Shown: positions 1 to 55,900 of the stretch, one piece after another | Position numbering within the stretch: the first letter of the stretch is position 1 | How the letters are laid out: each line of letters begins with the position of its first letter | Virus record (IMG/VR): IMGVR_UViG_3300008120_000119 | Span: 1 to 56,468 of that record | DNA: 56,468 nucleotides | From: a virus | Direction: 5' to 3' (one strand) | The notes under the pieces: model-generated | Told to the model about the DNA's origin: nothing | The model's database searches: none | What the model saw: only the letters and a program-made list of their open reading frames with translations | Made by a program: the position numbers and the translations under genes

Positions 1-876
1 CCACCACCGCCGCCACCTCCACCCCCAGAAGAAACCGAGGCAGAGAAGGCAGCAAAGGCAGCGGCTGCACGACGGGCTTCGGAACAGCGGCAACGTCGTC
101 AAGCTGCTCTTGGGGGCGGCCTGAGTGCGTTTTTGGCCCCTCGTCCGTCTTCCTCGGCAGAAGATACGTATGGACCATTCAACCCATTAGTAACCGGCGG
201 TCAAACTGCCAAATTTGAGGGCCCCCTACAGGATTTCCTGGAAAAAGTCGAGACCCAGTCATATACTGACGACACACCTTTCATGGCGCCAGAGGGGCAG
301 CAATCCACACCTGAAACGACAGATATGAATGCTCAACCTGCTCCAAGCTACTTTAATTACGGGAAATCCTCGGAAATCGACGACACGTTGAACGTGGCGC
401 GTGGGATCGACTCGCAGATCTCATCGATGTTTAATCCGTTCAGAGCCCCAGGCGTCGGCACGCCGATGTTTACTTTCAAGGAGGGCGGGCTGTCTACTCC
501 CATGTTTAATGAGGGTGGCACCACTCGATACGGCCGGTATGCTGGGGGCGGGCTAAATGTGGTGCATCATTCTGGCAAGCCCCGTATTGATTTCCGCGAA
601 GGCGACGCGGTGACCGGACCTGGAGACGGGCAGTCGGACGATATTCCTGCCATGCTAGCCGACGGTGAATTTGTATTCCCCGCTGACGTGGTGGCCGCTC
701 TTGGGAACGGGTCTACCAAAGCAGGCAGCGACAAGCTTTACGACATGATGCATTCGATCCGCGCACAGGCTAGATCGGCGCATCCCAAGGACTTGCCCCC
801 GCCGGCAAAGTCACCACTGGATTACTTGAAAGACAGCCCCAAGAAGGGTTCTAAAGACAGAAAGGCTAGGAGATAA
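1..876 (+). CDS. C-terminal part of giant internal virion (ejection) protein, 5' end outside the left edge
   Basis: The frame is open from base 1 with no credible start: it begins with nine prolines, then an Ala/Glu/Lys/Arg-rich helix. It probably continues the gene that leaves the right end of the window (52902-56468), because the frames join exactly and both sides are Pro-rich. The C-terminal part has Gly-Gly motifs (FKEGGLS, FNEGG, YAGGGL) and a segment around bases 600-760 (GPGDGQSDDIP, LADGEFV, GNGS) of a type I have seen at the end of many phage internal or tail proteins. The last 35 residues are Lys/Pro-rich. The next gene starts 3 bases after the stop. A role as an ejected or DNA-channel protein is inferred from position after the nozzle gene. 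Confidence 0.8.
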   Translation, partial: PPPPPPPPPEETEAEKAAKAAAARRASEQRQRRQAALGGGLSAFLAPRPSSSAEDTYGPFNPLVTGGQTAKFEGPLQDFLEKVETQSYTDDTPFMAPEGQQSTPETTDMNAQPAPSYFNYGKSSEIDDTLNVARGIDSQISSMFNPFRAPGVGTPMFTFKEGGLSTPMFNEGGTTRYGRYAGGGLNVVHHSGKPRIDFREGDAVTGPGDGQSDDIPAMLADGEFVFPADVVAALGNGSTKAGSDKLYDMMHSIRAQARSAHPKDLPPPAKSPLDYLKDSPKKGSKDRKARR

Positions 877-16831: not shown

Positions 16832-17128
16832 ATGGATAGATTCACGCAGATCCGCGCATGGGCGGAGGCCCGCAATTTGGTCGACGGGTCAAACCCGCAG
16901 GCGCAGTTTGTGAAGCTCGCAGAAGAGATTGGGGAGCTCGCCGCGGCAATCGCCAGGAAGAACCACGACGGGGTCGTAGACTCGATTGGAGACGCTGTGG
17001 TAGTCCTGACCATCCTGGCAGCTCAGCATCGGGTGCCGATCGAATCCTGCATAAATGTGGCCTGGGAGCAGATCAAGAACCGCAAGGGCCGCATGGTCGA
17101 CGGCGTCTTCGTTAAAGATGCAGAGTAA
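16832..17128 (+). CDS. MazG-like nucleotide pyrophosphohydrolase (98 aa)
   Basis: Residues LAEEIGELAAAI supply the EExxE motif and DSIGDAVVVL the second acidic motif (D in place of the usual E). These bind magnesium in all-alpha NTP pyrophosphohydrolases of the MazG/dUTPase-like superfamily. The length fits the single-domain phage type. Such enzymes cleave (d)NTPs or (p)ppGpp-like alarmones and are common in aquatic phages. GTGAGGGAGAC precedes ATG 16832. Its TAATG junction couples it to the large terminase gene. Confidence 0.75.
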   Translation: MDRFTQIRAWAEARNLVDGSNPQAQFVKLAEEIGELAAAIARKNHDGVVDSIGDAVVVLTILAAQHRVPIESCINVAWEQIKNRKGRMVDGVFVKDAE

Positions 17129-18549
17129 TGGCCGATGAGGTCGCAGCACTCCTCGCTGACCCTGACGTTCAGGCACAGTTCTCCCTTCTCAAGCCGGAGG
17201 AGCAAGTCGCGTGGGCTTGGCGAGCTCAATGGCTGGCAAAGGCTCATGCTCACCAAGTGGTCCCTATTGGGGACTGGTGGTCGATCTGGCTCATGCTGGC
17301 GGGCCGCGGCGCCGGTAAGACACGAACGGCAGCCGAGCAGGTTGGCTGGTGGGCCTGGACTGAGCCCGGTACCCGCTGGCTTGTCGGGGCACCGACGTCG
17401 TCTGATGTTCGCGCTACCTGCTTCGAGGGCGACTCGGGTCTTCTGTCTGTTATTCCTACCGCACTGATCGCCGACTACAACCGGGCCTTCCACGAGCTTA
17501 AGCTCACCAACGGCTCGATGATTAAGGGTATTCCCGCATCCGAGCCTGAGCGCTTCCGGGGGCCGCAGTTCCATGGGGCATGGCTCGACGAGCTGGCCGC
17601 CTGGGACTATCTGCAAGAGGCCTGGGACCAGATCATGTTCGGCGTCCGCCTGGGCAAGAAGACCCGTATCGTGGCCACCACGACCCCCAAGCCCAAAGAT
17701 TTGATCATCGAGCTCGTGGGCCGGGACGGTGACGACGTGGTCGTGACGACGGCCAGCACCTACGCCAACATCGACAACCTAGCCCCAAGCTTCCAGAAGC
17801 AGATCCTCCAGTACGAGGGGACCAAGCTCGGGCGCCAGGAGATCTACGCCGAGATCATCGATCCTGAAGAGGGCGGCATTGTGCAGCGCGACATGTTCAA
17901 GCTCTGGCCGGACGGGAAGGAGTTCCCCAAGTTCGAGTACATCGTCCAGAGCTACGACTGCGCGTACACCGAGAAGACCATGAACGACCCGACCGCCTGC
18001 ACGGTCTGGGGGGTCTTCAAGCCCTTAGACGGGCCTATGAGCGTCATGCTGATAGACGCATGGCAGGACCGCCTACAGTACCCCGACCTGCGGCCCAAGG
18101 TGATTGAGGAGTACGAGACGGTCTTCGGCGAGGGCAAGGGCAAAAAGCGGGTGGACCTGATCCTGGTAGAGGACAAGAGCGCAGGTATCAGCCTGATACA
18201 GGACTTGCAGCGGGCCCACCTGCCGGTCAGAGCGTACAACCCCGGGCGGGCAGACAAGGTGCAGCGCTTAAACATCGTGGCCAACATCATCGCCCGCGGC
18301 CGTGTCTGGATACCGGAGAGCAGCAAGCGCAAGGGCTACGTGCGTGACTGGGCCGAGGGGTTTGTGAGTCAGATCTGTTCGTTTCCTGAGACGACCCACG
18401 ACGACTATGTAGACGCCTGCACCCAGGCGCTGCGGTTCCTGCGGGACTCGGGCTGGCTGGAGATTGACCCGCCGCCCCAAGATGACTGGGACGAGGAGGA
18501 CTTCGTTGACAGCGGTCAGCCTAGACGGACAAACCCTTACGCCGTATGA
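17128..18549 (+). CDS. terL: Terminase large subunit (473 aa)
   Basis: The packaging motor ATPase and nuclease. Walker A AGRGAGKT lies at residues 58-65 and Walker B WLDE at 152-155, followed by the coupling segment TTTPKP (185-190). The nuclease half shows D277 (SYDCAY), E348-D349 (VEDKSAG) and D425-D426 (DDYVDA). The length is normal for a T4 gp17-type terminase. It starts at ATG 17128, overlapping the MazG-like stop. The acidic tail (DDWDEEDFVD) may contact the portal. It is followed by a 2124-residue protein rather than directly by the portal. Confidence 0.95.
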   Translation: MADEVAALLADPDVQAQFSLLKPEEQVAWAWRAQWLAKAHAHQVVPIGDWWSIWLMLAGRGAGKTRTAAEQVGWWAWTEPGTRWLVGAPTSSDVRATCFEGDSGLLSVIPTALIADYNRAFHELKLTNGSMIKGIPASEPERFRGPQFHGAWLDELAAWDYLQEAWDQIMFGVRLGKKTRIVATTTPKPKDLIIELVGRDGDDVVVTTASTYANIDNLAPSFQKQILQYEGTKLGRQEIYAEIIDPEEGGIVQRDMFKLWPDGKEFPKFEYIVQSYDCAYTEKTMNDPTACTVWGVFKPLDGPMSVMLIDAWQDRLQYPDLRPKVIEEYETVFGEGKGKKRVDLILVEDKSAGISLIQDLQRAHLPVRAYNPGRADKVQRLNIVANIIARGRVWIPESSKRKGYVRDWAEGFVSQICSFPETTHDDYVDACTQALRFLRDSGWLEIDPPPQDDWDEEDFVDSGQPRRTNPYAV

Positions 18550-18579: not shown

Positions 18580-21500
18580 ATGACTGAAGATGATATCCGG
18601 CTGGCCATGGAGCTGTTCGGCGGTAAAGGCTATAAAGACCCGCTCAACAAATACAACAGATCGCGGGAAATTCCGCCCGCACCGACCGGGAGGCGGTCAG
18701 CACTTGATGCCGCTAGGTTCCCAAAGGTGGGCAGGGGCACAGAAGTCTACGGGATTGAGGACGAGCTTCAAGAGTCGGAGCGCAAGAGCCGCGAAGCCAC
18801 CATCGCAGGCCTTGACCCGTTAGAACAATTGCAGGCAATCGGCGAAGGCGGTAGGGCCGTTGGACAGGGGCTCGTAGCAGGAGTCTTGCAGCCGTTCGCT
18901 CAGGTCATGGGCGTCCCCGCCGATAAATTCTTTAACGCGGCTATTGACTTTCCAGAAACCGAAGGTGGCAAAGCGTACGCACGCAAGGGCGCAGACGCAG
19001 CGCTAGGCTTCTTCGATGCAATGTCAGAGAGCCCGCTGGGCCCGGTGCTCAGCAAGATCCCCATGAGCCCATACAGCCCCGCCTCAGCTCAGGCAATCGA
19101 TACGGGACTCATGGCCGCCGGCAAGGGGCTGAAGCTCGCAGGTCAGCAGGCTAAGCAGGCTGGCAGGCAGACCCTGGAGGCCGGCAAGGATCTGGCTCAG
19201 GCAGCTCGGGCAGAGTTCGCTACCCCGCCGACGGGCGCGGTGCAGCTCCAGACCCAGCAGGCCACACGCAACCCGCTAGGCATGTACTCCCAGGCCGAGC
19301 AGGTAGCGCTCAATCTTGCTCAGGAGAAGGGCACGGGCAATCAGTTCCTGGCCCAGATCAGCAAGGCGCCAGGAGTCAAGCCCGCGGAGCTGGAGTGGAC
19401 GGGCCTCGCAGACTTCTTGAAGAGTAAGGGCGACAAGCCGGTCACTAAGGCAGAGATCCAGCAGCACCTTGACGCCAACCGCGTGCAGGTGCAAGAGGTG
19501 CAGTTAAGCGGCACGGTTCCGTACAACAGGGTCAGAACAGTCGAAGATCAAATCCCCGAGGGGTTTCATTACGAAGAGGTGCTCGATCGTGACGGTGAGC
19601 CGACCGGCATGATGAGAATCTACGACTCGGACGGTGATCTTGTTTCTGAATCCAGCGACCCAGAGCAACTGATGCGTCGCGCTGGGTTGAAGTATGAAGA
19701 AACCGAACCCGACGCAAAGTACGGTGAGTGGCAACTACCCGGCGGTTATAACTATCGAGAGGTGTTGCTGACGTTGCCGCAAAAAGTAGAAAAAGGTTTT
19801 ACGACACCGAATGGTGCGTTTTTTTCAGAGGCAGATTTAGAAAATCCAGTAGTACGGTCAACGGCGGAAAAAATAGGCTTGTCACCGGCCTTTAGAAATG
19901 TTGGCACTGTTTATGAATCTCCCCACTTCGATCAGCCCAACGTTCTGGCCCATATGCGCCTGAACGACCGCCTTGATGCTGATGGCAATAGGGTTCTATT
20001 TGTTGAAGAGATTCAGTCCGACTGGGGGCAGCAGGGTAGGGAGAAGGGGTTTGCAATTAAAGAAACGCCTTGGGATGACCCCGAATATAAAGCCGCTAGA
20101 GCAAGGTCCACTGAGTTACTTAATGAGTACAACAGGAACAACGATGACCTCATTCGTCAAAATGAAATAAGACCGCTTTTGGATGAGGCTAGAAGGCTTG
20201 AACACTCTTTTTTGGGTAAACGCGGCGCACCTCCCGCCCCCTTCGTACAGAACACAGAAGACTGGGTCAACCTATCTCTAAAGCGCCTGATCACCGACGC
20301 AGTCAATAACGGTTATAAGAAGGTCGCATTCATCAATGGTGATCAGTCTGCTGCACGGTATGACTTGAGTAAACATGTTGATGAGCTCTATTACATGCCC
20401 AAGTCCAACACCCTTGTTGCTACAAAGAATGGCCAGGAGGCGTTTAATCAAAGAGTGCCAGCCGACAAATTGGCTGACTACATTGGCAAAGATGCGGCCG
20501 AGAAATTATTGGTTGCTCCAGGTCCAGGCCCCCAGAATCTTTCTGGCTCTTCCATTCGGAAACTGTCCGGCGTAGACCTCAAGGTCGGCGGCGAGGGCAT
20601 GAAGAAGTTCTACGACCAGATCGTGCCGGCCACCGCAAATAAACTCCTGAAGAAACTGGGCGGCGGGAAACTGGAGCCCCTAAAGATCGGCGACAACGAG
20701 CAACTAGGATTCACCATCACGCCGGAGATGGTCGAGCTGGTGAAGAAGCAAGGCCTGCCGATGTTCGCTGGTGGTGGCGCAATCACTATGGCCAAGGGCG
20801 GAGAGGCTGAGCTAGATAACTACGCTTTGGCCGAGGCGGAGATGCAACAAGAGATAGAAGATGCTTTGGCCTACGAAAAACTTAACAGACTCCTGCGGGA
20901 GACCGAAGCTAAGTTGCGAGAGGGCTTGATCACCCCAGAAGAAGCGGTGCCCTTGATGGGTGGATTAAACGCTTATGAGATCGCTCGATTGTATGGGCTG
21001 CCAACAGATGATTATGTTCGGCCACAATTATCTTCAGACAATCCCGAGCAACATTACGATCTCATGCTCAGCCCAGAAAAATTGTCTCACATGGCTAGGC
21101 GTCATCGGGATTACGATCGCCGGATGAAGCAACATGAATACGGCCCCGATTCAGAAGAGGTGGAGGTTAACCTTGCCATTGGGGGCGGCGCGTTCAAGGG
21201 AATGAAGCAAGGCCTTCAGAGGGCGGCAAAAGGCCCCGGAAAGACAGAAGACCCAGCTAAGAAAGCATCGAAGGCGCAGCGCCGTGAAGTGCGCGTGCAG
21301 AAGAACCTGGAAGCGTACATGGGCTCAAAAGAGAAGCCCAAGACCTATTACCACGCCACCCAGGCCCCGGAAGACTTCGAGGCGTTCGACCTTGAGAAGC
21401 GCCCGACTAAGAGGTCAGCCGCGGCCGTGTTTGTCACGCCCAGCACCAACTGGGCAAACGACTGGGCCGTAGATGAGCTGGCCGACATGGACCTGCTGGA

Positions 21501-24500
21501 GAAGGTGGATACGCCCAAGCCGCGGATCATGCCTGTCATTACACGGGCGAAGAACACGTTCGATTACGACGATCTTGGCCATGTCACGCAGGTGATGAAT
21601 CAAGCAGATCTGCCGCCGGGGCTTGACCGCCAACACATTGCAGACCAGATCTCTATCGGCAACTGGAATTTCATCGAAGACCGCAACATTCAGAAGGCCA
21701 TCAAAGATCTGGGCTTTGACAGCTTCTTCGTCAAAGAGAAGGGCGTGAAGAACATGGGTATCTTCAACCCGGGAGACGTGAAGGCGCTGTTTAATCGCGG
21801 GTCATACGATCCCACGACCGCAGACATCTCGAAGGCAGACGGCGGGAGGATCAGCGCCGACGATATCCGACAAAAATTAAAGAACGCCTTTAACTTTGCA
21901 GGCGGTGGCGGTGTGGGGCTCCGGGGCGCTATGCGTGGTCTTGAGGCCGTGCAGTCTGGGGCGGACAAGGCCAAGCCCGCGGTCAGCCGCATCGATATGA
22001 GCTACAAGGACGTCACCAAGCGCGTTCCTGAGCTCACAGAGGCCGCCAAGAAGGTCGAGGCTGGTGAGATGAACGCCGAGGAGTACGCGGGCCTTGTGGG
22101 CGAGGTAAAGCCCGTGGAGCCCTATGCATTCGTTCCGCAGCCGGCCAGCGCAGAAGACGCCATGCGTGCGCTGACTGAGAACAAGCGCCCGATGTTTGGT
22201 AAGACCGGAGAGCTCAAGCCTGGGGAGCGCGCAGACCTGCGCCTCGATATCCCTGCCTATAAAGACCATGGGGTCTGGATCAACTCGATCCACCGTGCGA
22301 GTGGCCCGACAGTCTATGGTTCGGTCTCTTCGGTGAAGAATGCCACCATGATTGGTGCGCCTGAAAAGGCTCTGAAGGTCGCGACCGGCCAGACGCCGAA
22401 GTCTCCATTTGCGGTGATCCGCGGCGAGTGGAACCCGGTCAGCGAAGAGGAGGCGGTGGCCAAGGCGCAGCTCTACATGCAGAGCCCCGAGTGGGTGCAG
22501 GTGGGTTACGACCCCGAGCGCGCTGGATACTTCTACGATCGCAAGACACGCAAGCCCGTGACCGCGGCCGAGGAGGTGCTACAGATCGGCCCGCTCGTAC
22601 TGGCCAAGAAGCCGAAGTTCTCGGACGTGAAAGATCAGAAGTTCGCAGAAGGTGGCGCCACGTCGAACACCCTCCTGGAGCGCCTGCGGAGGTACAAAGT
22701 CGGCGGGGCAGTCTCGGGGGCCCAGAAAGGTCTGAAAGCCGTCTCGAAGTCAACGAAATCCGCTAAGCCCGCCAAGGCAACAGAGCCAGCCAAGACTGAG
22801 TCCGTCATTGAGGACTGGCAGTGGCGACCCAACGAGCAGGTCACCGCCGAGGTGGGGCTCAAAGAGGTGCCCGACTACATCCAGGGCGGATATGGCGAGT
22901 TCATGAAGGGCCAGCAGAAGCGAGCCCAGGCAGGCCAGATGGGCGTGCGCGACCTCATCAAGGCCTACACCATCACCCGGTCTAGCGTGAACCGCTCCGG
23001 TTTGCCACGAGACACGGCCACTAAGACGGGAATGAAGATCCCTCAGACAGATGGTCTTGTCCGCCCCGAGGGCGCCTTTGCCGAGTGGCTGGGGTCCAAG
23101 CAGGGGCAGAACTATCTGAAGGCAGCAGACCGCGGCGAGATCGACGAGAAGGCGATTGCCGACTTGCAGACGAAGTTTGCCCCCTTCGGTATGGCATCGG
23201 TCCTGGCAGACGACATGCGCTGGGCGGTGAAGAATGCGCCCACTCTAGCGTCGAACCTGTCGCAGACCATCATCGGTGACCCGCAGACATATCGGTCGGT
23301 CTCCCAGCAGCTCCAGGGCATCGGTCCGGCTAAATCAGGGTTCCTCGGGTCACTCGTTGGCCGCGGCGACTTCCCCACGCTCGATGCCCGTCAGCTTCGG
23401 TTGCACACGGGGGCAGGCGGTGCAGAGGCCTCGAAGTTCATGCGGCGCCGCGGTGGCTTGGGCGGTGAGCAGGCAGTCGGCCGGCTGGCTGGTCGCCAGG
23501 AAGAGATGGGCCTGGATATCGACCCGTCACTCAATCCCTTCTATCAGCACCTGACGCACCACGCCGTGTGGGACAAGGTGGCCGACGAGCAGACCACGCA
23601 CGACGATCTTGTGCGGGCCATGATGGGTTACAAGGACGGCGGTGAGGTAAAGCTCTCCAGAGGGGGCGGAGACCTCTTGGGGCGCATGGAAAAGGGCCTA
23701 AGAGCGGCGCAAAAGGGCACCGAGAAGAAAGCTAAGAAGGATAAGCCGCCACCGAAATTTGAACCGGCCCCGGCTATTCCCAAAGAGCAGATTCGGAGCA
23801 TGGCTGAGCGTATCGCGCAGCAGACAACCGGCGAGTTTGTCCGCCAGAACCCGAAGACCACTCAGAACCCGGAAGGGCTCTCAAAGGTTCAGTTCGAGCG
23901 GACGAAGGCCGTCAAGCCGAACATCAAGTACAACGTCCCCCAAAAGGATGCGCCGGTCGTTGATATCGAAAAGTACAAGGATTACCTGCTTGTAGGTGTT
24001 CCTGGAGACATCACACCTGGAGGCGTCATTCGTACTGACCCCGTTGATTTAAAGCCACGCGCCACGCAAGAGTTACTTGGCATCGATGACGTAGAGTTTG
24101 AGACGCCGGTAGGAATGTATGGTGGCAGCCGTTACGGGCAAGAAAGTGTGTTCCCCGAAGGGCTCGAAGCTTTCTGGGCCTCTGGTTTGAGTCCTGCACG
24201 TGCGCTGCAAAACTCAATAACCAGATTTTCTGAAGCGGAGGGCGGCCGTCCGGTTCTGGGCATGTTCTCTAAGATGAGTCGGCCGGCTTCTTCATTCTCT
24301 GGTCACTTAATGGAGGGTTTGCTGGAGTACCAGCACCCAGAGAGACTGCCTAAAGCGAAGATACGAGAGCTTAATGAAATTGTGCGACGTGGCACGCCAA
24401 GCAAACAATTCCCAAACTTTGTAGGGTTTGAAGATCCGGAAAAGATGCGGGTGCAAGCAATGCAGGACGGTAAGTTGAGGACGCACATAAACAACGTATT

Positions 24501-24954
24501 GACAATGTCTACGTTGAATAAGCAGCTAGGCCTGGACCCCAAAAAAGGATTGCGATCTGGGCTAGATGTCTCGGCGGCAATGACAATCCCTGAGCTTTCA
24601 GGGCTTGAGGTGGGGGCTAGTGGATATTCGTTAGGTCGCATGGTTCCTGGCGCTGATTTAAGGTTAAGCGCTCACCCAACGTACTCGCAAGACATTTCCG
24701 GTGAATTTCTGGGACGTACGCCTTATCACATTCCGTATGAGCTAGCGTACCCCCGGACTGCACATTTTGTGCGCGAAAACATTCCCCGTGGAGAGCTGTT
24801 TAACACCATGAAGGGCACGGGCATGAAAGAGCAGATCGACCAGCAATATATTGATCAGATCAAGCTCTACCAGCAGTACATGAAAGAATTGACGGGTCGC
24901 AAGAAGGGTGGGCTCGCCACAATCAAAAAAGCGAAGGTGAAAAATGGCAACTGA
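18580..24954 (+). CDS. Giant polyvalent protein with several LPD-type domains, ART-like and HhH-like modules (2124 aa)
   Basis: Modules by eye are as follows. An N-terminal helical region (1-270). A large polyvalent-protein domain (about 290-730) with FVEEIQSDWGQ near 473. An ADP-ribosyltransferase-like module (about 920-1070) with YYHATQAPEDF and GFDSFFVKEKG. A module with RLDIPAYKDHGVWI and QIGPLVLAKKPK (1220-1340). A helix-hairpin-helix-like module (1400-1670) with GIGPAKSGFLGSL and FPTLDARQLRLH. A C-terminal LPD-like module (1725-2100). Gly-Gly/Lys-rich linkers separate them. Known polyvalent proteins are packaged and delivered to the host, which suits a gene beside the portal. It overlaps the portal start by 11 bases. 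Confidence 0.75.
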   Translation: MTEDDIRLAMELFGGKGYKDPLNKYNRSREIPPAPTGRRSALDAARFPKVGRGTEVYGIEDELQESERKSREATIAGLDPLEQLQAIGEGGRAVGQGLVAGVLQPFAQVMGVPADKFFNAAIDFPETEGGKAYARKGADAALGFFDAMSESPLGPVLSKIPMSPYSPASAQAIDTGLMAAGKGLKLAGQQAKQAGRQTLEAGKDLAQAARAEFATPPTGAVQLQTQQATRNPLGMYSQAEQVALNLAQEKGTGNQFLAQISKAPGVKPAELEWTGLADFLKSKGDKPVTKAEIQQHLDANRVQVQEVQLSGTVPYNRVRTVEDQIPEGFHYEEVLDRDGEPTGMMRIYDSDGDLVSESSDPEQLMRRAGLKYEETEPDAKYGEWQLPGGYNYREVLLTLPQKVEKGFTTPNGAFFSEADLENPVVRSTAEKIGLSPAFRNVGTVYESPHFDQPNVLAHMRLNDRLDADGNRVLFVEEIQSDWGQQGREKGFAIKETPWDDPEYKAARARSTELLNEYNRNNDDLIRQNEIRPLLDEARRLEHSFLGKRGAPPAPFVQNTEDWVNLSLKRLITDAVNNGYKKVAFINGDQSAARYDLSKHVDELYYMPKSNTLVATKNGQEAFNQRVPADKLADYIGKDAAEKLLVAPGPGPQNLSGSSIRKLSGVDLKVGGEGMKKFYDQIVPATANKLLKKLGGGKLEPLKIGDNEQLGFTITPEMVELVKKQGLPMFAGGGAITMAKGGEAELDNYALAEAEMQQEIEDALAYEKLNRLLRETEAKLREGLITPEEAVPLMGGLNAYEIARLYGLPTDDYVRPQLSSDNPEQHYDLMLSPEKLSHMARRHRDYDRRMKQHEYGPDSEEVEVNLAIGGGAFKGMKQGLQRAAKGPGKTEDPAKKASKAQRREVRVQKNLEAYMGSKEKPKTYYHATQAPEDFEAFDLEKRPTKRSAAAVFVTPSTNWANDWAVDELADMDLLEKVDTPKPRIMPVITRAKNTFDYDDLGHVTQVMNQADLPPGLDRQHIADQISIGNWNFIEDRNIQKAIKDLGFDSFFVKEKGVKNMGIFNPGDVKALFNRGSYDPTTADISKADGGRISADDIRQKLKNAFNFAGGGGVGLRGAMRGLEAVQSGADKAKPAVSRIDMSYKDVTKRVPELTEAAKKVEAGEMNAEEYAGLVGEVKPVEPYAFVPQPASAEDAMRALTENKRPMFGKTGELKPGERADLRLDIPAYKDHGVWINSIHRASGPTVYGSVSSVKNATMIGAPEKALKVATGQTPKSPFAVIRGEWNPVSEEEAVAKAQLYMQSPEWVQVGYDPERAGYFYDRKTRKPVTAAEEVLQIGPLVLAKKPKFSDVKDQKFAEGGATSNTLLERLRRYKVGGAVSGAQKGLKAVSKSTKSAKPAKATEPAKTESVIEDWQWRPNEQVTAEVGLKEVPDYIQGGYGEFMKGQQKRAQAGQMGVRDLIKAYTITRSSVNRSGLPRDTATKTGMKIPQTDGLVRPEGAFAEWLGSKQGQNYLKAADRGEIDEKAIADLQTKFAPFGMASVLADDMRWAVKNAPTLASNLSQTIIGDPQTYRSVSQQLQGIGPAKSGFLGSLVGRGDFPTLDARQLRLHTGAGGAEASKFMRRRGGLGGEQAVGRLAGRQEEMGLDIDPSLNPFYQHLTHHAVWDKVADEQTTHDDLVRAMMGYKDGGEVKLSRGGGDLLGRMEKGLRAAQKGTEKKAKKDKPPPKFEPAPAIPKEQIRSMAERIAQQTTGEFVRQNPKTTQNPEGLSKVQFERTKAVKPNIKYNVPQKDAPVVDIEKYKDYLLVGVPGDITPGGVIRTDPVDLKPRATQELLGIDDVEFETPVGMYGGSRYGQESVFPEGLEAFWASGLSPARALQNSITRFSEAEGGRPVLGMFSKMSRPASSFSGHLMEGLLEYQHPERLPKAKIRELNEIVRRGTPSKQFPNFVGFEDPEKMRVQAMQDGKLRTHINNVLTMSTLNKQLGLDPKKGLRSGLDVSAAMTIPELSGLEVGASGYSLGRMVPGADLRLSAHPTYSQDISGEFLGRTPYHIPYELAYPRTAHFVRENIPRGELFNTMKGTGMKEQIDQQYIDQIKLYQQYMKELTGRKKGGLATIKKAKVKNGN

Positions 24955-27496
24955 ATTCCCGATTGATCAAGAAGCCGACCGCTTCATTCCTGGAATCCCT
25001 GGGCAGCAGCCCGAAGAGGAGGAAGAGGGCGCCGAGCTTGAGCTAGTTCTCGACGATTCCGAGCTCGAAGAGCTGCCAGACGGCTCTGTGGTGGTCAAAA
25101 TGGACACCCAGGGGCCCATGGAGAACGAAGATTTCTACCAAAACCTCGCAGATTCTGACGTTCTGGACTCCTACGACCTGTCCGTGATGGCCATGAAGTA
25201 CATCGAGCTGGCCGAAAAGGACAAAAAAGCCCGTGAGCAGCGCGATAAGCAGTACGAAGAGGGCATCCGCCGCACCGGACTGGGCAACGACGCACCTGGG
25301 GGCGCGAATTTCAACGGCGCCAGCAAGGTCGTACACCCCGTAATGGCCGAAGCCTGCGTCGATTTCGCTGCCCGCGCCATTAAAGAGCTGTTTCCGCCCG
25401 ATGGTCCGACCAAAACGAAGATCCTGGGCGACGTCACAGAAGACAAAGTGCAGATCGCCGAGCGCAAACGCGACTGGTTTAACTGGCAGATCACCGAGCA
25501 GATCGAAGAATTTCGCGATGAAGAGGAGCAGATGCTCACGCAACTGCCTCTTGGGGGCTCCCAGTTCCTGAAGTTCTGGTACGACGAGCAGAAGCGCCGG
25601 CCGTGTATGCAATTCCTGCCGATCGACAACATTTTGCTGCCCTATTCCAGCGGAAACTTCTACACCTCGCCCCGCGTGACTGAGGTCGACGACATTTCCG
25701 AGTACGAATACAAGCGTCGGATCTCTTCTGGCCTGTATCGGGACATCTCTTACATCCGCGCCAGCATGGACCCGGAGCAGACCGGTCCTCAAAAGGCCAC
25801 CGACAAGGTCGAAGGCAAGTCTCAGAACGATAACGAAGACGGCACGCGCCGCATGTACCACATCTATACGTGGCTAGAGCTCGAAGATGACAAGTACAGC
25901 AAGGGTGAGCTCGCTCCCTACATTTTGATGATCGATGAGATGGAGAACGAGATCGTCGGTCTGTACCGGAACTGGGAAGAGGGCGACCAAACGATGACCA
26001 AGCTCGACTGGATCGTCGAGTACAAGTTCATTCCCTGGCGTGGCGCTTACGCTGTTGGCCTGCCGCACCTGATTGGCGGGCTGTCTGCTGCACTGACGGG
26101 TGCGCTGCGGGCGCTTCTGGACTCCGCGCACATCAATAACGCAGCCACCATGCTGAAACTTAAGGGGGCGAAGGTCTCCGGCCAGTCCCAGCAGGTTGAA
26201 GTCACCCAGGTGGCGGAGATTGAGGCGGCCCCAGGCGTGGATGACATCCGCAAAGTGGCGATGCCCATGCCATTTAACCCGCCCAGCCCGGTGCTTTTTC
26301 AGCTCTTAGGCTGGCTCACGACGTCCGCTAAGGGGGTAGTGACCACCGCGGAAGAAAAGATCGCTGACGTCAATTCTCAGACCCCTGTGGGCACGACTCA
26401 GGCCCTCATTGAGCAGGGCGCAGCAGTTTTCTCGTCCATTCACGCCCGATTGCACGAGTCGCAGGCCCGCGTACTGAAGATTCTGTCGCGAATCAACCGC
26501 TGGTACCTCGATGACATGCGTCGCACCGAGGTGGTGGAGGACCTGGAGGTTAAGCGTGAGGATTTCGCCCGGGTAACGGACGTGATTCCGGTCTCAGACC
26601 CGCATATCTTCTCGGAAACGCAGCGGATGGCCCAAACCCAGGCGGTTATGGCCATGATGAAAGAGAATCCGGACCTATTCAACCGCAAGGCGGTGGTCAC
26701 GCGGTTCTTAAAGCAGATCAAGGTGCCGAACATCAACGAATTGATGCCGGATACGCCCGCCCCCACCAAGATGGACGCTGCCAACGAGAACGTGGCCATG
26801 GCGATCGGGCAGGCTGCCTATGCTTACCCCGAGCAGGACCATCTGGCACACATTCAGGCGCACCTGGACTTCGCTAAGAGCCCGATCTTCGGTGGCAACC
26901 CCATCATTGCGCCTGCATACCTGCCCAAGGCGGCCGAGCACATCAAGCAGCACATGGTCCTGTGGTATCTGAACCGCATGACTGGGTACGCCCAGAAAGC
27001 TTTAGACGCAAAGCTTGGCGATTACGACCTGTTAAGCGACCCCAAAGACGTGGACAAGATCTTCGCCCTGGCCTCGCAGCACGTCGAGATCGACGCCGAC
27101 GAGACTCTGAAGGGCGTGATGCCTGTCGTCATGAAGATGGTCCAGCAGGCGCAGCAGTTCAAGCCGAAACCTCCAATGACTCCCGAGACGCAGGTTCTCT
27201 TGCAGACCTCGATGGCAGAGACGCAGCGCCGTCAGGCCCGCGACGAGGCAGAAATGCAGCTCAAGTCTCAAGAGATGGAGATGGACACGCAGCTGGCGTT
27301 GAAGAAGCAGGCCGACGACATGCAGCTCGCCATGGAAGAGTTGCAATTGAAGCTGGCCATTGCTACCGGCGACCAGGAAACAAAAGAACGCATCGAAACC
27401 GCACGTCTAACACGGGATGCGGCCCGTCTGTCTTTGGATAAGGAAAAGACCGTGTTGGACATCAACCTTAAAGGAGGCCCAAATGGCTACCAGTGA
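24944..27496 (+). CDS. Portal protein, podovirus type (850 aa)
   Basis: It would form the dodecameric DNA gate at the capsid vertex. It has an acidic N-terminus, then GANFNGASKVVHPVMAEA, a core with PIDNILLPY, and the later segment ADVNSQTPVGTTQALIEQG, and it ends in a long charged coiled-coil (about 755-840). The size (about 850) and layout fit the large portals of P22-like and related environmental podoviruses. A barrel-forming C-terminal helix is typical of these. It starts at ATG 24944 inside the end of the polyvalent gene, suggesting coupled translation. Confidence 0.85.
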   Translation: MATEFPIDQEADRFIPGIPGQQPEEEEEGAELELVLDDSELEELPDGSVVVKMDTQGPMENEDFYQNLADSDVLDSYDLSVMAMKYIELAEKDKKAREQRDKQYEEGIRRTGLGNDAPGGANFNGASKVVHPVMAEACVDFAARAIKELFPPDGPTKTKILGDVTEDKVQIAERKRDWFNWQITEQIEEFRDEEEQMLTQLPLGGSQFLKFWYDEQKRRPCMQFLPIDNILLPYSSGNFYTSPRVTEVDDISEYEYKRRISSGLYRDISYIRASMDPEQTGPQKATDKVEGKSQNDNEDGTRRMYHIYTWLELEDDKYSKGELAPYILMIDEMENEIVGLYRNWEEGDQTMTKLDWIVEYKFIPWRGAYAVGLPHLIGGLSAALTGALRALLDSAHINNAATMLKLKGAKVSGQSQQVEVTQVAEIEAAPGVDDIRKVAMPMPFNPPSPVLFQLLGWLTTSAKGVVTTAEEKIADVNSQTPVGTTQALIEQGAAVFSSIHARLHESQARVLKILSRINRWYLDDMRRTEVVEDLEVKREDFARVTDVIPVSDPHIFSETQRMAQTQAVMAMMKENPDLFNRKAVVTRFLKQIKVPNINELMPDTPAPTKMDAANENVAMAIGQAAYAYPEQDHLAHIQAHLDFAKSPIFGGNPIIAPAYLPKAAEHIKQHMVLWYLNRMTGYAQKALDAKLGDYDLLSDPKDVDKIFALASQHVEIDADETLKGVMPVVMKMVQQAQQFKPKPPMTPETQVLLQTSMAETQRRQARDEAEMQLKSQEMEMDTQLALKKQADDMQLAMEELQLKLAIATGDQETKERIETARLTRDAARLSLDKEKTVLDINLKGGPNGYQ

Positions 27497-27638: not shown

Positions 27639-27826
27639 GAAGTAGAACCCTAGGTGACTTAATTGGCGCTTTGAAGGCCTCGCAGAGTGAAATAGCTCTG
27701 TCCCTGGCTCGTGGCAACGTGACGACCTGGGAGGCGTATCAAAGGCTGGTGGGGAAGCATGATGGGCTGGAAGAAGCCCTGACAATACTTAATAACCTTC
27801 TAAAGGAAGACAATGAAAATGAGTGA
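27635..27826 (+). CDS. Small hypothetical protein (63 aa), GTG start
   Basis: GTG 27635 overlaps the previous stop. Helical (LGDLIGALKASQSEIALSLA, EAYQRLVGKHDGLEEALTIL) with an acidic tail. It resembles small proteins found between portal and scaffold in related phages; role unknown. Confidence 0.55.
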   Translation: MRSRTLGDLIGALKASQSEIALSLARGNVTTWEAYQRLVGKHDGLEEALTILNNLLKEDNENE

Positions 27827-28250
27827 ACCGGTAGCTTCTAACGAAGCTGAGTTGGCTTGGGCATTTCCGAGCGTAGAACCCGGAGCAAAACCATTAGGTG
27901 GACGTATTCTGGTGCAATTGCGCCGGACGAAGAAGAAGACCACGAGTGCCGGGATTTTGTTGGTTGAAGAAACCAAAGAAACCGAGAAGTGGAACAACAT
28001 GGTCGCCAAAGTCATTGAGATCGGACCCCTGGCATTCCGCCATCGGGACACGATGCAGGCTTGGCCCGAAGGATCTTGGTGCGAGCCGGGTGATTACATC
28101 CGCGTGCCCAAGTGGGGCGGCGACCGCTGGGAAGTCAAAGTACCGGGTGATGATGACCTGGAAGACCCAGCACTGTTCATGATTCTCAACGATCACGAGG
28201 TCATCGCAAAGGTGACGGGTGATCCCCTGGCAATGAGGGCCTTCATATGA
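27813..28250 (+). CDS. GroES-like co-chaperonin (145 aa)
   Basis: The core matches GroES/Cpn10: PLGGRILVQLRR as first strand, then a mobile-loop-like segment TSAGILLVEE (residues 44-53) with the hydrophobic tripeptide ILL that in GroES touches GroEL. WNNMVAKVIEIGPL, EPGDYIRVPKWGG and LFMILNDHEVIAKV follow. It is longer than E. coli GroES (97) by an N-terminal arm and a central insertion (FRHRDTMQAW). T4 gp31 is the classic phage analogue needed to fold capsid protein; here the gene sits just before scaffold and capsid. ATG 27819 is an alternative start. Confidence 0.75.
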   Translation: MKMSEPVASNEAELAWAFPSVEPGAKPLGGRILVQLRRTKKKTTSAGILLVEETKETEKWNNMVAKVIEIGPLAFRHRDTMQAWPEGSWCEPGDYIRVPKWGGDRWEVKVPGDDDLEDPALFMILNDHEVIAKVTGDPLAMRAFI

Positions 28251-30389: not shown

Positions 30390-31304
30390 ATGGCCGCCCC
30401 GATGCGTAGTACCGACTTTCGGTCGATTGTTGAGCCAATCCTCAACGAGTGTTTTGACGGAGTCTATGATCAGCGTACCGATGAATGGTCACGGGTTTTC
30501 CGTGAGCAGCAAGGTATCCCCCGTAACTACCACGAAGAGCCCGTCCTGTATGGATTCGGCGCTGCGCCCCAACTGCCTGATGGTACCCCCGTGTCCTATC
30601 AGCAGGGTGGCGTACTCTTCCTGAAGCGCTATGTGTACAACGTGTATGGCCTTGCCTTCGCGCTGACCAAAGTGCTCGTGGAAGACGGCGACCACATCCG
30701 TATTGGTCAGGTTTATGCCCGTCACTTGGCTCAGTCCCTGATTGAGACCAAAGAGACCCTTTCGGCGAACGTTCTCAACCGTGCGTTTAACTCTGCCTAT
30801 CCTGGCGGTGACGGCGTGCAGTTGAACTCCAACGCTCACCCGATCGTGAACGGCACCTTCAGCAACCTGCTGACGACCGCCGCTGTGCTGTCGCAGACCT
30901 CACTTGAGCAGATGCTTATTCAGATCCGCCAAGCAGTGGACAACAACGGCAAGAAGATCCGTCTGGTTCCCCGCCAACTGGTGGTGGCCCCGGGCAACGT
31001 CTTCCAGGCTGAGGTTCTCCTGAAGTCTGTTCTGCGCTCCGGTACCGCCGACAACGACATCAACCCGATCAAGTCCATTGGACTGCTGTCGGAGGGTGCC
31101 GCTGTTCTGTCGCGTCTCACCAGTGCTACGGCATGGTGGGTGCAGACCGACGCGCCGGAAGGTATGAAGCTCATGATGCGTCGTGCTCTTGAGAAGACCA
31201 TGGAAGGTGATTTTGAGACCGATTCCATGCGTTACAAGGCCACGGAGCGTTATGACGTTGGCTTCACCGACCCGCGTGCGATGTACGGTACGCCTGGAGT
31301 CTAA
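30390..31304 (+). CDS. Major capsid protein (304 aa)
   Basis: Order and composition fit an HK97-fold shell protein. It has an N-terminal helix (STDFRSIVEPILNECFDGVY), an E-loop-like strand region (GGVLFLKRYVYNVYGLAFAL), a spine helix with LAQSLIETKETLSANVLNRA, the LVVAPGNVFQAEVLL segment and a C-terminal FETDSMRYKATERYDVGF. Its length of 304 is usual for Mu-type/environmental podovirus capsid proteins. AAGGAGG lies before ATG 30390. It is followed by a terminator-like hairpin, consistent with high separate expression. Confidence 0.85.
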   Translation: MAAPMRSTDFRSIVEPILNECFDGVYDQRTDEWSRVFREQQGIPRNYHEEPVLYGFGAAPQLPDGTPVSYQQGGVLFLKRYVYNVYGLAFALTKVLVEDGDHIRIGQVYARHLAQSLIETKETLSANVLNRAFNSAYPGGDGVQLNSNAHPIVNGTFSNLLTTAAVLSQTSLEQMLIQIRQAVDNNGKKIRLVPRQLVVAPGNVFQAEVLLKSVLRSGTADNDINPIKSIGLLSEGAAVLSRLTSATAWWVQTDAPEGMKLMMRRALEKTMEGDFETDSMRYKATERYDVGFTDPRAMYGTPGV

Positions 31305-31891: not shown

Positions 31892-33028
31892 ATGGGACAG
31901 TTTAAGCCGATGGTCAAGATGATGACCACAGAGCCCACCGTTGAGTTGAAGCTCAAAAAGGGCGGGAAAGTAGAGAAGAAGATGCAGATGGGTGGCGACC
32001 CAGCCATGGCTCCGGCCGCTGGTTCTATGCCTGCTCGTGGCGGCATGGCGCCCTCACGCGCACCGATGAAGCCTGGGCTCTTTGCCCGTCGTCGCGCTAT
32101 GCGTGGTATGGGCGCTGGTCCTGCGGGCCCCCTTGGCCGCGGTTCCGACATGATGGAAAACATGGAAGCTCGTCGCGCTATGGCCCCGGCTCCCGCCATG
32201 AAGAAGGGTGGCGAGACCAAGGCTGAGCACGCTGCCGAGATGAAGAAGATGGCTGAGACCTCGAAGAAGCTCAAGGAGCACGCCGACAAGCCCGCTAGCA
32301 AGGCTCACAAGGGCCTGAAGACTGGCGGAGTGGTGATGGGCCAAGGCGGCTATAAAGAGGGCGGCATCATCAAGACGATGACCAACAAGACGACCGACAT
32401 GCACACTGCTCATCGTGACACCGATCAGGGTCCGACGGGCGGCGTGAAGCTTGGTAATGGCGGCGGTTACAAGAAGGGTGGCGCAGCGAAGAAGGACTGC
32501 TACGCGACCGGTGGCGTCGTTATGGGCCAGGGTGGGTACAAAGAAGGCGGTGATGTAAAAAAGCAAAAAGCTACGGGAAAAAATGCTAGCGGCGCTCCCG
32601 TAGCTATGCCTCAAGGCCGCAAACCTGCCCCCAAGGCTGTTGCCATCAACGAGCTGTCCGGCACCTATAAAAAGGGTGGCCCGGTCATGACTCCCGCTCA
32701 GAAGCGCTTGGACAACATTTTCCAGAAGGAGAATGCTCCTGCGATGAAGGCGGCCAAGAAGATGAGCAACGAGAAGTACGGTCGCAAAATGGCAAAGGGC
32801 GGAGACGTAAAACGACGCTCATTGACTGACAAATTTCGCGAAGAATCAGGCTTTGGCGATGAAATGAAAGATCTTGTTCAACGCCTTACCCCGCAGCAAG
32901 CAAAACGCGAAAAAGAGTCTAGCGACAGGTACATGAGTGATGGAGCCGTCACTGAGACTGAAAGGTCCGTAACGGTGGTGCCAGGGAAGAAGCACGGCGG
33001 TAAAATGGCCCGAGGCGGCTCTTGCTAA
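31892..33028 (+). CDS. Gly/Lys/Met-rich repeat protein (378 aa)
   Basis: A highly basic, low-complexity protein. The block GGVVMGQGGYKEGG occurs twice (near bases 32323 and 32509) with different codons, and related KKGG/AKGG motifs recur (MKKGGETKAE, YKKGGAAKKD, MAKGGDVKRR). The C-terminus is HGGKMARGGSC. No enzyme motif. Such basic Gly-rich proteins are encoded among head genes of environmental phages and could bind DNA inside the capsid; this is inference. Confidence 0.6.
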   Translation: MGQFKPMVKMMTTEPTVELKLKKGGKVEKKMQMGGDPAMAPAAGSMPARGGMAPSRAPMKPGLFARRRAMRGMGAGPAGPLGRGSDMMENMEARRAMAPAPAMKKGGETKAEHAAEMKKMAETSKKLKEHADKPASKAHKGLKTGGVVMGQGGYKEGGIIKTMTNKTTDMHTAHRDTDQGPTGGVKLGNGGGYKKGGAAKKDCYATGGVVMGQGGYKEGGDVKKQKATGKNASGAPVAMPQGRKPAPKAVAINELSGTYKKGGPVMTPAQKRLDNIFQKENAPAMKAAKKMSNEKYGRKMAKGGDVKRRSLTDKFREESGFGDEMKDLVQRLTPQQAKREKESSDRYMSDGAVTETERSVTVVPGKKHGGKMARGGSC

Positions 33029-52901: not shown

Positions 52902-55900
52902 ATGGGTTGGAACCCGAAACGAGATCTACAAAAAGCCTGGAGAGGCGTAGAAAAGACAGTCTCCAAGGCTGTACCCAAAGAGATCAAAGAAAACCCAGCC
53001 ATTCTTTTGGTGGCTGCGGCAGTTTTTGCTCCCCACCTGATCCCACAAATTGGTCAATACACAGCATCTGCTGTTGGTCTTGGTGCTGTAAGCCCTGCTG
53101 TTGCTGCCGGTATTGGAGCTGGGGTCGTATCAGGAACGATGACCGCCATTCAAGGTGGTGACGTTGGTGATGTTCTTAGAAGCGCGGTTATTAGCGGCGT
53201 CGCTGCTGGTGCTGGAACTGCCGCTGGCAGTTATGTCGGCACTGAAGTTGGATTTGCTGTTGATGCCTCTATGCCTGGGTTCGGAGTCACGGCAGGTAAT
53301 ATAGCCGAACGAGTAGTAAGCGGCGCTGTACGCAGTTCTCTTCAGACTGGCCTGCAAACCGGAGATTGGGCTCAGGGGTTGAAGACTGGCGCAATCATGG
53401 GTGCTGCCGCGTCTTTGCCGGACATTTTTAATCAATCTGCCGCGTTTCGAGATCTTCCAAACTTTGCCAAAAACATAGTCGCGCAATCGACGATTGCATC
53501 TGTAACAGGCGGAGACCCTGCGGAAGCAGCAATCACAGCGACAATGCAGGGTGCGCTGAAACAAGGCGCAGAGGTTTTCTCTCGCATGTTCAAGGCAGAC
53601 CCGAACGGCGATATTGCAAAGTTTGCCAAAGAGAATCCAGAGGCTGCGTCATTAATGATGACGAGCATGGGCTCTGCCATAAGCGCAACGCTAACGGGCA
53701 AAGATGTCAGTGACGCGGTGATGGATAACGCGGTCAAATTTGCTACTGACAAGATGCGCCAGGGAATACGCACCGGCGTAATCCAGAACAGCATTCAAAA
53801 AGCTCAGCAGAACTACGCCGAAGTAGAAGACCTGACCGCGGAAATAAGCTCAAGGAATGCAAAGCTTGAAGAGCGTGTGAAGGACTTTAATAAAAGCATT
53901 CCCTACTATGACAGGGTTTTTGACAGAGAGGCTAAGTCTGTTCAGCAAGCTTTAGATGTTGTTAAACAAGACTATCAAGCTTATAAGTCGGCCGAGCAGG
54001 CATACTTGAATGGTGGGTCTCCTTGGACATACGATGAATTTGGTAATTTAGTTAGTACCGGCGTTTCTCTTGAGCAGGTCAATGCTGCTGCAAATAAAGT
54101 AAATGAAAGCTATAAAGTTTTTCAAAACAGGCAGGACAATTTTGACGTTGTCAATAGAAGCATTTCTGAACAGGTAGCCAGTCTAGAACAAGAAAAAGCC
54201 GACATCGCTAAGCTGTACGACGGCGCTCAAGCAAAAATTGACAATGTCTCAATAAACTCTTTTCTCTTTACCAAGTATTCTGATGAGCTAAAAGACGACA
54301 TTCTTGCAAACGCTGAGGCGCTGACAGATCCCAACAAGTACGCGCTTTATCAAGAGAAGCAAAGCAAGCTTGGTCTTGCATACGATGAGTACCTTAAGAG
54401 CTTGCCGCCTGATAGCGTAAGCAACAAGGTCTATCCGAACACGGTCACGCCGAACTTTAAGATCGACAGTGACTACAACGTCATCGATCGCAAGAGCAAT
54501 CAGGTTATTGGTAGGCTGCCTGCTGATCAGCGAGCTATTGAAACCGCTCAGATAAGCAGAGACTCAAAAACCGGAAACATTCAAATTACATCCGGTGCGA
54601 AGGCTAGTAAAGACGATGACTATGCTTATGTAGACCCGGTTACTGGAAAGCCAAAAATAAGAGTGACTACGTCTGCTCCAAGCGATGCGGGCACACTCAT
54701 ATTGAAGCAATCGTCCTTGAATGGCGTTGATTTTGTTTTGGAACCAATTGTTGTGACTGCCACCAGAGAAGGTGCAGAAACGCTTAGCGCATTGCAAACT
54801 GAAGACCCAATGGCTTGGTACTACGCTGTTGCCAACATGCCAGAAAAGCAGCGCGACAGGTTTATACCTCCAGAGGTAAGCAGAACAGTATCAGATACCT
54901 GGAAAAATATTAAAGAAGGCGTTCCTCAATCTGTTAAAAACGCTATCGTTAATGTTGTCAGTGCTGCCAAGCCAGAAGCAACAACGCTAGAAGCGCTTTC
55001 CGCGATGGCGTATGTCGGCAAAAACTTTGCGGATGTTTTTGGCGCAAACAATGTTATCTCCCAGAATTTTGACAAGGCTAATGTTTACATTCAGGGCATG
55101 CTTAGTGCAGCAGCTAAAAATGACAAAGACGAAGCAAATCGCATCATGGACGCGGCGAAGAACGCTGGCGTGCTTGATCAGACCATTGCTGCTTTTGAGG
55201 CGTTAAGAGCTTATCCCGCTGCAATATTCCAGGGTGTCGGTAGCATCATGGGGTCAGCAATTTTATTGGCGCCAGCGTTAGCGTTGAGTACAACAGCTGC
55301 GCAAGCTCAAATTGCGACGTATGGCCTTGGTGGCATCCAGGGCGCGGGTATTGCCAAGGGCACTCTATACGACGAGACAAAAAAAGCTCTCACAGCGGCG
55401 AATGAAAAGTACAAACTAGGTTTAAGTTCCGGAGAAATTGAGCTGCGCGCTCAAGAGGCTCAGGCATATAACGGAAAAAATTTAGATCTGATCTTTGCAA
55501 ACATGGCTGCCGGTTCTTTGGCTGGCGGTAAGGGCGCGGAGCAGATCTTCACTAAACAGATTGCAGCAGACATTGCACAGGGAGTAGCTCAAAAATCAGC
55601 CGCTAATCAATTTGTAGCTGGTGGCCTTGATATGGCTCGGGCGGGGATTAATGAGGGCATCTGGGAATACGCGCAGGGTGCAACTGAGCGTGGTACGGCC
55701 AACATCAATCTACAGCGGCAAGGTTTTGACATTCCGACCATGCAAGGTGTGCATGGGGCTGGTACTTATGAGGCTTTGATAGGCGTTCCGAGTGCTATTG
55801 GCATAGGTGGAGTAGGTATAGGGTCATCGCCACCACCGCCACCTGGAAGCGGAGGCATTACAGGAATAGGGCCATTTCCGCCATCGGGATCTGGCAGCTC

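What the first reader, a model, noticed from the sequence alone, without database searches (positions are those of the whole stretch)
18580..24954. 2124-residue multi-domain polyvalent protein between terminase and portal
The protein strings together several large polyvalent-protein modules, an ADP-ribosyltransferase-like module and a helix-hairpin-helix-like module. Polyvalent proteins are thought to be injected with the DNA to disable host defences. Its position between TerL and portal is where some phages carry MuF-type or other co-packaged proteins. This is the best candidate in the window for an undescribed host-modifying system.
Basis: partly seen in the sequence, partly recalled or inferred. 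Interest (0 to 1): 0.65.

Follow-up and report, generated by a model that had tools for sequence, protein, structure and literature searches.

The report
Shuffled phage effector with shared tags
A phage gene wedged between the DNA-packaging motor and the portal encodes a giant string of separately folding modules (one ADP-ribosyltransferase-like, one with the fold of a DNA-repair glycosylase), probably carried in the particle into the host cell; close relatives reshuffle the modules freely but keep the same short peptide at most joints, which points to a plug-in system for loading proteins into phages.

Summary
The 2124-aa ORF is real and lies between TerL and portal. It matches no Pfam family itself, LPD families included. 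Relatives resolve it into modules M1-M6. M3 is ART-PolyVal-like: Pfam matches three of eight relatives, best 6.8e-16. M5 is helix-hairpin-helix: the best 20 PDB matches of its model are all HhH-GPD DNA glycosylases, led by OGG2-type 8-oxoguanine glycosylases; the catalytic Asp is in register, the Lys is not. M1 is weakly GNAT-like. M4 and M6 are widespread but uncharacterised. In 17 phages with 87-95% identical capsid proteins the slot holds 12 module line-ups. Joints carry a short motif, [YFM]xxGGx[V/A]: 13 per 1000 aa at module C-ends against 0.37 inside modules. The motif recurs in a basic protein encoded after the capsid gene and in a third late protein. About a quarter of these proteins end in GG-plus-tail tags almost absent from 16,430 other ORF ends. 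I read this as a virion-delivered polyvalent effector whose interchangeable modules carry a shared loading or docking peptide. Packaging, injection and activity are inferred. No description of the motif, tags or glycosylase module was found in the library searched. New variant of a known kind.

The parts
18580..24954 (+). whole polyvalent ORF, 2124 aa
18580..19179 (+). N-terminal 200 aa, Gly/Ala-rich and amphipathic-looking, conserved only in the closest relatives; possible entry or packaging region
   Evidence: the role is inference
19192..20784 (+). M1 module (PGGxNYRE...EExQSDW...GGEGMKxFYD); AF2 mean pLDDT 84.8; weak GNAT-like fold
20761..20808 (+). GG joint MFAGGGAITMAKGG between M1 and M2
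20797..21189 (+). M2 segment, conserved only in very close relatives
21172..21192 (+). weaker GG site LAIGGGA (Leu in the first position)
21352..21849 (+). M3, ART-PolyVal-like module (YYHAT...VFVT...GFDS...NPGDVKA...KADGG)
21895..21915 (+). GG joint FAGGGGV between M3 and M4
21997..22677 (+). M4 module (LRLDIPAY...QIGPLVL), uncharacterised; at least 591 related stretches in IMG/VR
22642..22713 (+). GG joint pair FAEGGAT...YKVGGAV between M4 and M5
22837..23646 (+). M5, HhH-GPD glycosylase-like module; HhH at residues 1580-1590 (GIGPAKSGFLG), Asp1602 in TLDARQ, Lys1585
23383..23385 (+). codon of Asp1602, in register with the HhH-GPD catalytic Asp (20 residues after the hairpin Gly, as in E. 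coli Nth)
23629..23670 (+). GG joint pair YKDGGEVKLSRGGG between M5 and M6
23782..24891 (+). M6 module (GGSRYG...FWAS...HPTY...PGEFLG), uncharacterised
24892..24951 (+). C-terminal GG tail (GRKKGGLATIKKAKVKNGN); not one of the three tag patterns scored
31892..33028 (+). basic 378-aa 'KKGG' protein after the capsid gene, with 11 copies of [YFM]xxGG (0.94 expected from shuffles); orthologues in 17 phages
133..876 (+). C-terminal part of a third late protein with the same motif (FKEGG, FNEGG, YAGGG) and a tape-measure-like C-terminus
17128..18549 (+). TerL, upstream border of the slot
24944..27496 (+). portal, downstream border of the slot; start overlaps the ORF's stop

Best explanation
The ORF is a polyvalent effector protein loaded into the phage head and delivered with the DNA. 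It is a string of separately folding modules, at least two of which have enzyme folds: an ART-PolyVal-type ADP-ribosyltransferase (M3, acting on host proteins or nucleic acid) and an HhH-GPD glycosylase-like domain (M5, acting on or binding bases in DNA). The TerL-portal slot is a cassette in which modules are gained, lost and reordered while head genes stay nearly constant. The joints carry a short linear motif, [YFM]-x-x-G-G-x-[V/A], and the proteins often end in GG-containing tails. The same motif recurs in the basic KKGG protein and in a late tape-measure-like protein. I propose that it is the loading or docking tag: it lets any module, in any order, be held by a common partner in the prohead, and leaves flexible joints that help the chain unfold through the tail and refold. 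Shown by computation: modules, permutation, motif placement, tags, co-occurrence, folds. Inferred: packaging, docking, injection, activities.
For: Slot and context: TerL - polyvalent gene(s) - portal - (GroES-like) - scaffold-like - capsid - KKGG order in 17 phages with 87-95% capsid identity and 12 module line-ups, plus the window as a 13th. ART: Pfam ART-PolyVal in 3 of 8 relatives, best 6.8e-16. HhH: OGG2 glycosylases 3n0u and 3knt at prob 1.00, TMt 0.60-0.67; catalytic Asp invariant in 31 sequences and in register. Motif: 13.06 per 1000 aa at module C-ends against 0.37 in cores; 160 of 233 module C-ends carry it nearby against 18.4% for random positions. Strict motif: 54 observed against 0.52 expected in polyvalent proteins, 38 against 0.32 in KKGG orthologues. 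Ordinary codon use and 413 of 452 DNA 15-mers distinct, so the selection looks protein-level. C-terminal tags: 26/18/5 polyvalent ORFs against 0/1/0 of 16,430 others. KKGG occurs with motif-bearing polyvalent genes (15/1/3/14, Fisher 1.3e-5). Precedents: polyvalent proteins (PMC5512222); P1 DarB loaded by a short peptide (PMC9024508).
Against: No virion proteomics. No module was shown to be active. M5: Lys at +3 instead of +2, no C-terminal OGG2 Lys at the expected place, no sequence-profile support, and Foldseek E-values only 7e-3 at best. M3: Tyr replaced by Phe. M1: GNAT matches at E >= 0.12 only. Tags A-C cover only about a quarter of polyvalent ORFs, and the window's own tail is a variant that none of them scores. 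Co-occurrence and tag counts are not corrected for phage kinship. Related giant proteins without joint motifs exist (e.g. L107, L137, L146), so the motif is not needed for every such protein.
Confidence: 0.58

Rival explanations
1. The GG joints are only flexible spacers or preferred recombination joints; modules are injected together and the motif has no partner.
For: GG is a common hinge; modules do swap at these joints.
Against: Conserved aromatic/Met at -3, Ala/Lys at -2 and Val at +3; the same strict motif in KKGG orthologues, which are not multi-module; C-terminal tags with nothing behind them to space; ordinary codon use and diverse DNA argue against a DNA-level recombination site.
Confidence: 0.25
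2. The GG motifs are protease processing sites: the chain is a polyprotein cut into single effectors during head maturation, as P1 DdrB and giant-phage head proteins are processed.
For: Position exactly between modules; processing precedents in PMC5512222 (P1 DdrB) and PMC10052503 (SPN3US, abstract).
Against: No head-protease-like gene among the late genes scanned; the one peptidase found is M15 next to the holin, an endolysin candidate. Conserved residues lie downstream of GG at true C-termini, which cleavage after GG would remove.
Confidence: 0.2
3. It is an internal ejection or structural protein (pilot/channel) that has decayed enzyme folds, rather than an effector.
For: Late-gene position; amphipathic-looking N-terminus; M3 and M5 active-site deviations.
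Against: Free module permutation and loss under nearly constant head genes do not suit an essential channel; invariant Asp and other residues in M5.
Confidence: 0.12

Closest known systems
Polyvalent proteins of phages and conjugative elements (Iyer et al. 2017, PMC5512222)
   Same: Very large multi-domain late protein, ART-PolyVal-type domain, phage with a portal-terminase system, unrelated activities in one chain.
   Different: M1, M4, M5 and M6 match no Pfam family, the catalogued polyvalent domains included. A glycosylase module is not mentioned there (0 occurrences of 'glycosylase'), and neither 'linker' nor 'glycine' occurs in its text.
P1 DarB / Dar proteins (PMC9024508)
   Same: Giant packaged protein listed just before the portal gene in the P1 ORF order; loaded by a short peptide (N-terminal 30 aa suffice).
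   Different: P1 has an N-terminal signal with no consensus found among Dar proteins; here a repeated internal motif and GG C-terminal tags are shared by several proteins. Domain content was not compared.
OGG2 8-oxoguanine DNA glycosylases (Tm1821 3n0u, MjaOgg 3knt)
   Same: Overall HhH-GPD fold in the model, HhH hairpin, catalytic Asp in register.
   Different: Catalytic-Lys position is Ala with a Lys one residue later, no C-terminal Lys at the expected place; embedded in a 2124-aa phage protein; no sequence similarity detectable.
phrog_7348 'endolysin' (2564-aa profile)
   Same: Matches residues 222-635 (M1) at 2.2e-18.
   Different: The match lies deep in the profile of another giant phage protein; the name does not describe this module.

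Membership tests
Phage polyvalent protein | two or more domains of unrelated type in one chain | tested here: met
   Modules occur in separate and permuted contexts; ART in relatives, HhH-GPD fold
Phage polyvalent protein | contains a catalogued polyvalent domain | tested here: met
   ART-PolyVal on 3 of 8 M3 relatives, best 6.8e-16; the window protein itself matches none
Phage polyvalent protein | encoded with virion genes of a portal-terminase phage | tested here: met
   TerL and portal on either side
Phage polyvalent protein | packaged and injected | not testable with these tools
   needs virion proteomics and a translocation assay
ART-PolyVal / Tox-ART-HYD2 | H in strand 1, Y in strand 2, D in strand 5 | tested here: inconclusive
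   His in YYHAT and Asp in GFDS kept; strand-2 position is Phe in the window (F 32, Y 28, W 13 across the family); strand assignment by analogy, M3 was not folded
HhH-GPD DNA glycosylase | fold | tested here: met
   the best 20 PDB matches are HhH-GPD enzymes; prob 1.00 for 3n0u and 3knt
HhH-GPD DNA glycosylase | HhH hairpin plus Gly/Pro-rich loop and catalytic Asp | tested here: met
   GIG...PTLDARQ, Asp 20 residues after the hairpin Gly as in Nth
OGG2 8-oxoG glycosylase/lyase | catalytic Lys at hairpin +2 | tested here: not met
   Ala at +2, invariant Lys at +3
OGG2 8-oxoG glycosylase/lyase | C-terminal Lys that senses 8-oxoG | tested here: not met
   no Lys nine residues after the invariant Trp; module continues into a linker
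GNAT acetyltransferase (M1) | GNAT fold | tested here: inconclusive
   GNATs fill the top Foldseek ranks but at E >= 0.12, prob <= 0.47
MuF protein | MuF domain | tested here: not met
   no such family in Pfam at E <= 1 or PHROGs at E <= 0.5

The most novel reading that the evidence does not exclude
The GG motif plus C-terminal GG tags form a general cargo-loading code in this phage group: a short peptide recognised by a common prohead partner (KKGG protein or its ligand), so that any enzyme module fused to it is packaged and injected. This would make the TerL-portal slot a natural exchange port for effectors, among them a virion-borne HhH-GPD DNA glycosylase.
Probability: 0.33. Interest if true: 0.82.

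Novelty: new variant of a known kind. Interest (0 to 1): 0.62.

Why it matters
How giant effector proteins are chosen for loading into phage heads is mostly unknown outside T4 and P1. A repeated, sequence-defined motif shared by unrelated proteins of one phage gives a directly testable loading code. Phages that share a nearly identical capsid protein yet differ in effector content offer a natural series for asking what each module does to host range and defence. A DNA-glycosylase-fold module in a probably injected protein would add a new kind of activity to the early arms race on DNA.

Tried and rejected
Pfam and PHROGs on the whole protein gave no usable domain names; the PHROG 'endolysin' label was set aside because the match lies in M1. 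Sequence-profile searches of M5 and M3 against PDB and hhalign of M5 against cellular HhH-GPD proteins were not significant, although the best local pairing put the two hairpins in register. hhalign used only five template sequences, so it is a weak test. A multi-module alignment with bare fragments (A7) misplaced M5 and A9 misplaced half of M1; both were dropped for A10 and A11. PF00730 had no match in three relatives' phage records, two of which (G001, G004) carry M5; PF22175 had none in four MAG genomes, whose PF00730 matches were taken only as templates for the comparison. Literature searches for the motif strings and for glycosylases in polyvalent proteins found nothing relevant (papers in 112 were not read through). 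A DNA-level origin of the motif was rejected on codon use. The genome scan gave only four small MAG contigs, so no host is assigned.
Full report
Observation. The ORF 18580-24954 (+) is open for 2124 residues. TerL (17128-18549) and portal (24944-27496) flank it, and its stop overlaps the portal start by 11 nt. The window is an IMG/VR virus record of 56,468 bases. Its close relatives occupy the same slot.

Modules. Neither Pfam nor PHROGs names domains in the protein itself, apart from a phrog_7348 match in M1 whose 'endolysin' label does not fit. Iterated profiles built from relatives give M1 (205-735), M2 (740-870, close relatives only), M3 (925-1090), M4 (1140-1366), M5 (1420-1689) and M6 (1735-2104). 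In genome contigs M5 turned up in only four small MAG contigs, so it looks mainly viral.

M3. Three of eight relatives match Pfam ART-PolyVal, best E 6.8e-16. The His (YYHAT) and an Asp in GFDS (Asp in 83 of 92 family rows) are kept. The position described as Tyr in strand 2 (PMC5512222) is Phe in the window and Phe, Tyr or Trp across the family. Activity of the window's copy is therefore uncertain.

M5. The AF2 model of residues 1145-2110 has mean pLDDT 80.9; the M5 part is all-helical. Its PDB matches are led by OGG2-type 8-oxoguanine glycosylases: 3n0u at E 6.9e-3, prob 1.00, TMt 0.60; 3knt TMt 0.67. The best 20 matches are all HhH-GPD glycosylases; rank 21 is the first unrelated chain. In 31 sequences the motif GI(G/A)xAKSGF...PT(L/F)DARQ is conserved and Asp183 of the module (protein residue 1602) is invariant. 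In E. coli Nth the hairpin GVG is followed by Lys at +2 and Asp at +20 (sequence); MjaOgg has the same 18-residue Lys-Asp spacing (K129, D147; PMC5069365). M5 has Asp at +20, but Ala at +2 and an invariant Lys at +3. The OGG2 C-terminal Lys is not found at the expected distance. Profile comparison is not significant. The fold assignment is good; a bifunctional 8-oxoG enzyme is not supported, and a monofunctional glycosylase or a base-binding domain fits better.

M1, M4, M6. M1 models well (pLDDT 84.8). GNATs dominate its PDB list, but at E >= 0.12. M4 is the likely target of phrog_586, of unknown function, which matches 18 of the 42 A10 rows. The M4-M5-M6 model matches many proteins of uncultured phages in BFVD, some annotated with ART-PolyVal, lysozyme, PcfJ-like or zeta-toxin domains, as expected of polyvalent proteins.

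Permutation. Across loci the module order differs: M5-M4-M6-M1, M6-M3-M4-M5, M4-M1-M6, M3-M1-M5, M5-M6 and others. Twenty IMG/VR records hold a capsid protein related to the window's. In 17 of them (capsid identity 87-95%) the slot was read, in one or two ORFs, with 12 distinct line-ups; the window is a 13th. Detection of a missing module depends on the profile thresholds, so some line-ups may be incomplete.

Joint motif. In 152 non-redundant ORFs, [YFM]xxGG occurs at 13.06 per 1000 aa around module C-ends, 0.37 inside modules and 1.79 in other linkers. Of 233 module C-ends 160 carry it within -30 to +60 residues, against 18.4% for random positions. By module: M5 26/26, M6 32/36, M4 41/46, M1 41/68, M3 20/57; M3 usually ends in KAxGG, which the pattern does not count. 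Consensus at joints: [Y/M/F]-[A/K]-[K/D/E]-G-G-x-V. Codon use is ordinary and 413 of 452 DNA 15-mers differ.

Sharing. The protein at 31892-33028, encoded after the capsid gene, has 11 copies (0.94 expected from shuffles). In 17 orthologues the strict motif is found 38 times against 0.32 expected; in polyvalent proteins 54 against 0.52; in the other assigned late proteins almost never. The late protein ending at 133-876 and four of its relatives also carry it. In records of at least 45 kb, KKGG orthologues go with motif-bearing polyvalent genes (15 both, 1 KKGG only, 3 motif only, 14 neither; Fisher 1.3e-5). The 'KKGG only' record is one whose polyvalent ORF was missing from that table; one search shows it does carry such ORFs. 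One 'neither' record (L155) had no ORF captured either. Phage kinship is not corrected for.

C-terminal tags. Three tail types were seen: A, GG...[DE]xMxxE[LM]; B, GG...ER[KPM]L at the very end; C, GGL[TSA]..M.R. Among 16,633 distinct ORF ends they occur in 26, 18 and 5 of 203 module-bearing ORFs and in 0, 1 and 0 of 16,430 others. They follow different last modules. The patterns were written after looking at the ends, so these counts describe rather than test. The window's own tail (KKGGLATIKK...) resembles C but does not match it.

Mechanism. Best supported: a virion-delivered polyvalent effector whose modules share a loading or docking peptide. Modules, permutation, motif placement and sharing are computed; packaging, partner binding, injection and enzyme action are inferred. 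Cleavage after GG is less likely because conserved residues lie beyond GG at true C-termini and no head protease was identified among the proteins scanned; a mere spacer does not explain the motif in KKGG.

Known and new. Polyvalent proteins (PMC5512222) and head loading of a giant protein by a short peptide (P1 DarB, PMC9024508) are known. New here, as far as the searchable library shows, are the joint motif shared by several late proteins, the GG tails, and an HhH-GPD-fold module in a polyvalent protein. Most subscription papers and all bioRxiv preprints were outside the library.

Noticed in passing
53001-56468 and 1-876: One long frame is open to the right end (at least 1156 aa, ending in a PAPAPA run) and another is open from the left end (PPPPPPPPPEETE...) into the ORF called at 133. 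The record is probably broken inside one proline-rich gene of a circularly permuted genome.
   Followed up: partly
27813-28250: GroES-like co-chaperonin gene between portal and scaffold-like gene, at this position in many relatives (phrog_3188, 6.9e-9).
   Followed up: partly
31892-33028 and orthologues: Most KKGG orthologues end in or very near a cysteine (KKRGGSC, KKAYGGAC, KKGNC); some hold tandem KYATGGVVQ repeats.
   Followed up: no
L008:2723-3160: A relative carries an extra ART module inserted between the N-terminal region and M1.
   Followed up: no
18580-19179: Gly/Ala-rich N-terminus resembles the N-termini of some other polyvalent ORFs in the slot (e.g. MPNPRAQ...GRGAVRGALAEGL); possibly membrane-active.
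   Followed up: no
30390-31304: Capsid protein is Mu gpT/Phage_capsid_4-like and 87-95% identical in phages whose polyvalent genes differ strongly.
   Followed up: partly
L021:2697-9917: Dolichospermum phage Dfl-JY45 has two M1 and several ART-like modules in one 2407-aa protein, without the joint motif doublets.
   Followed up: no
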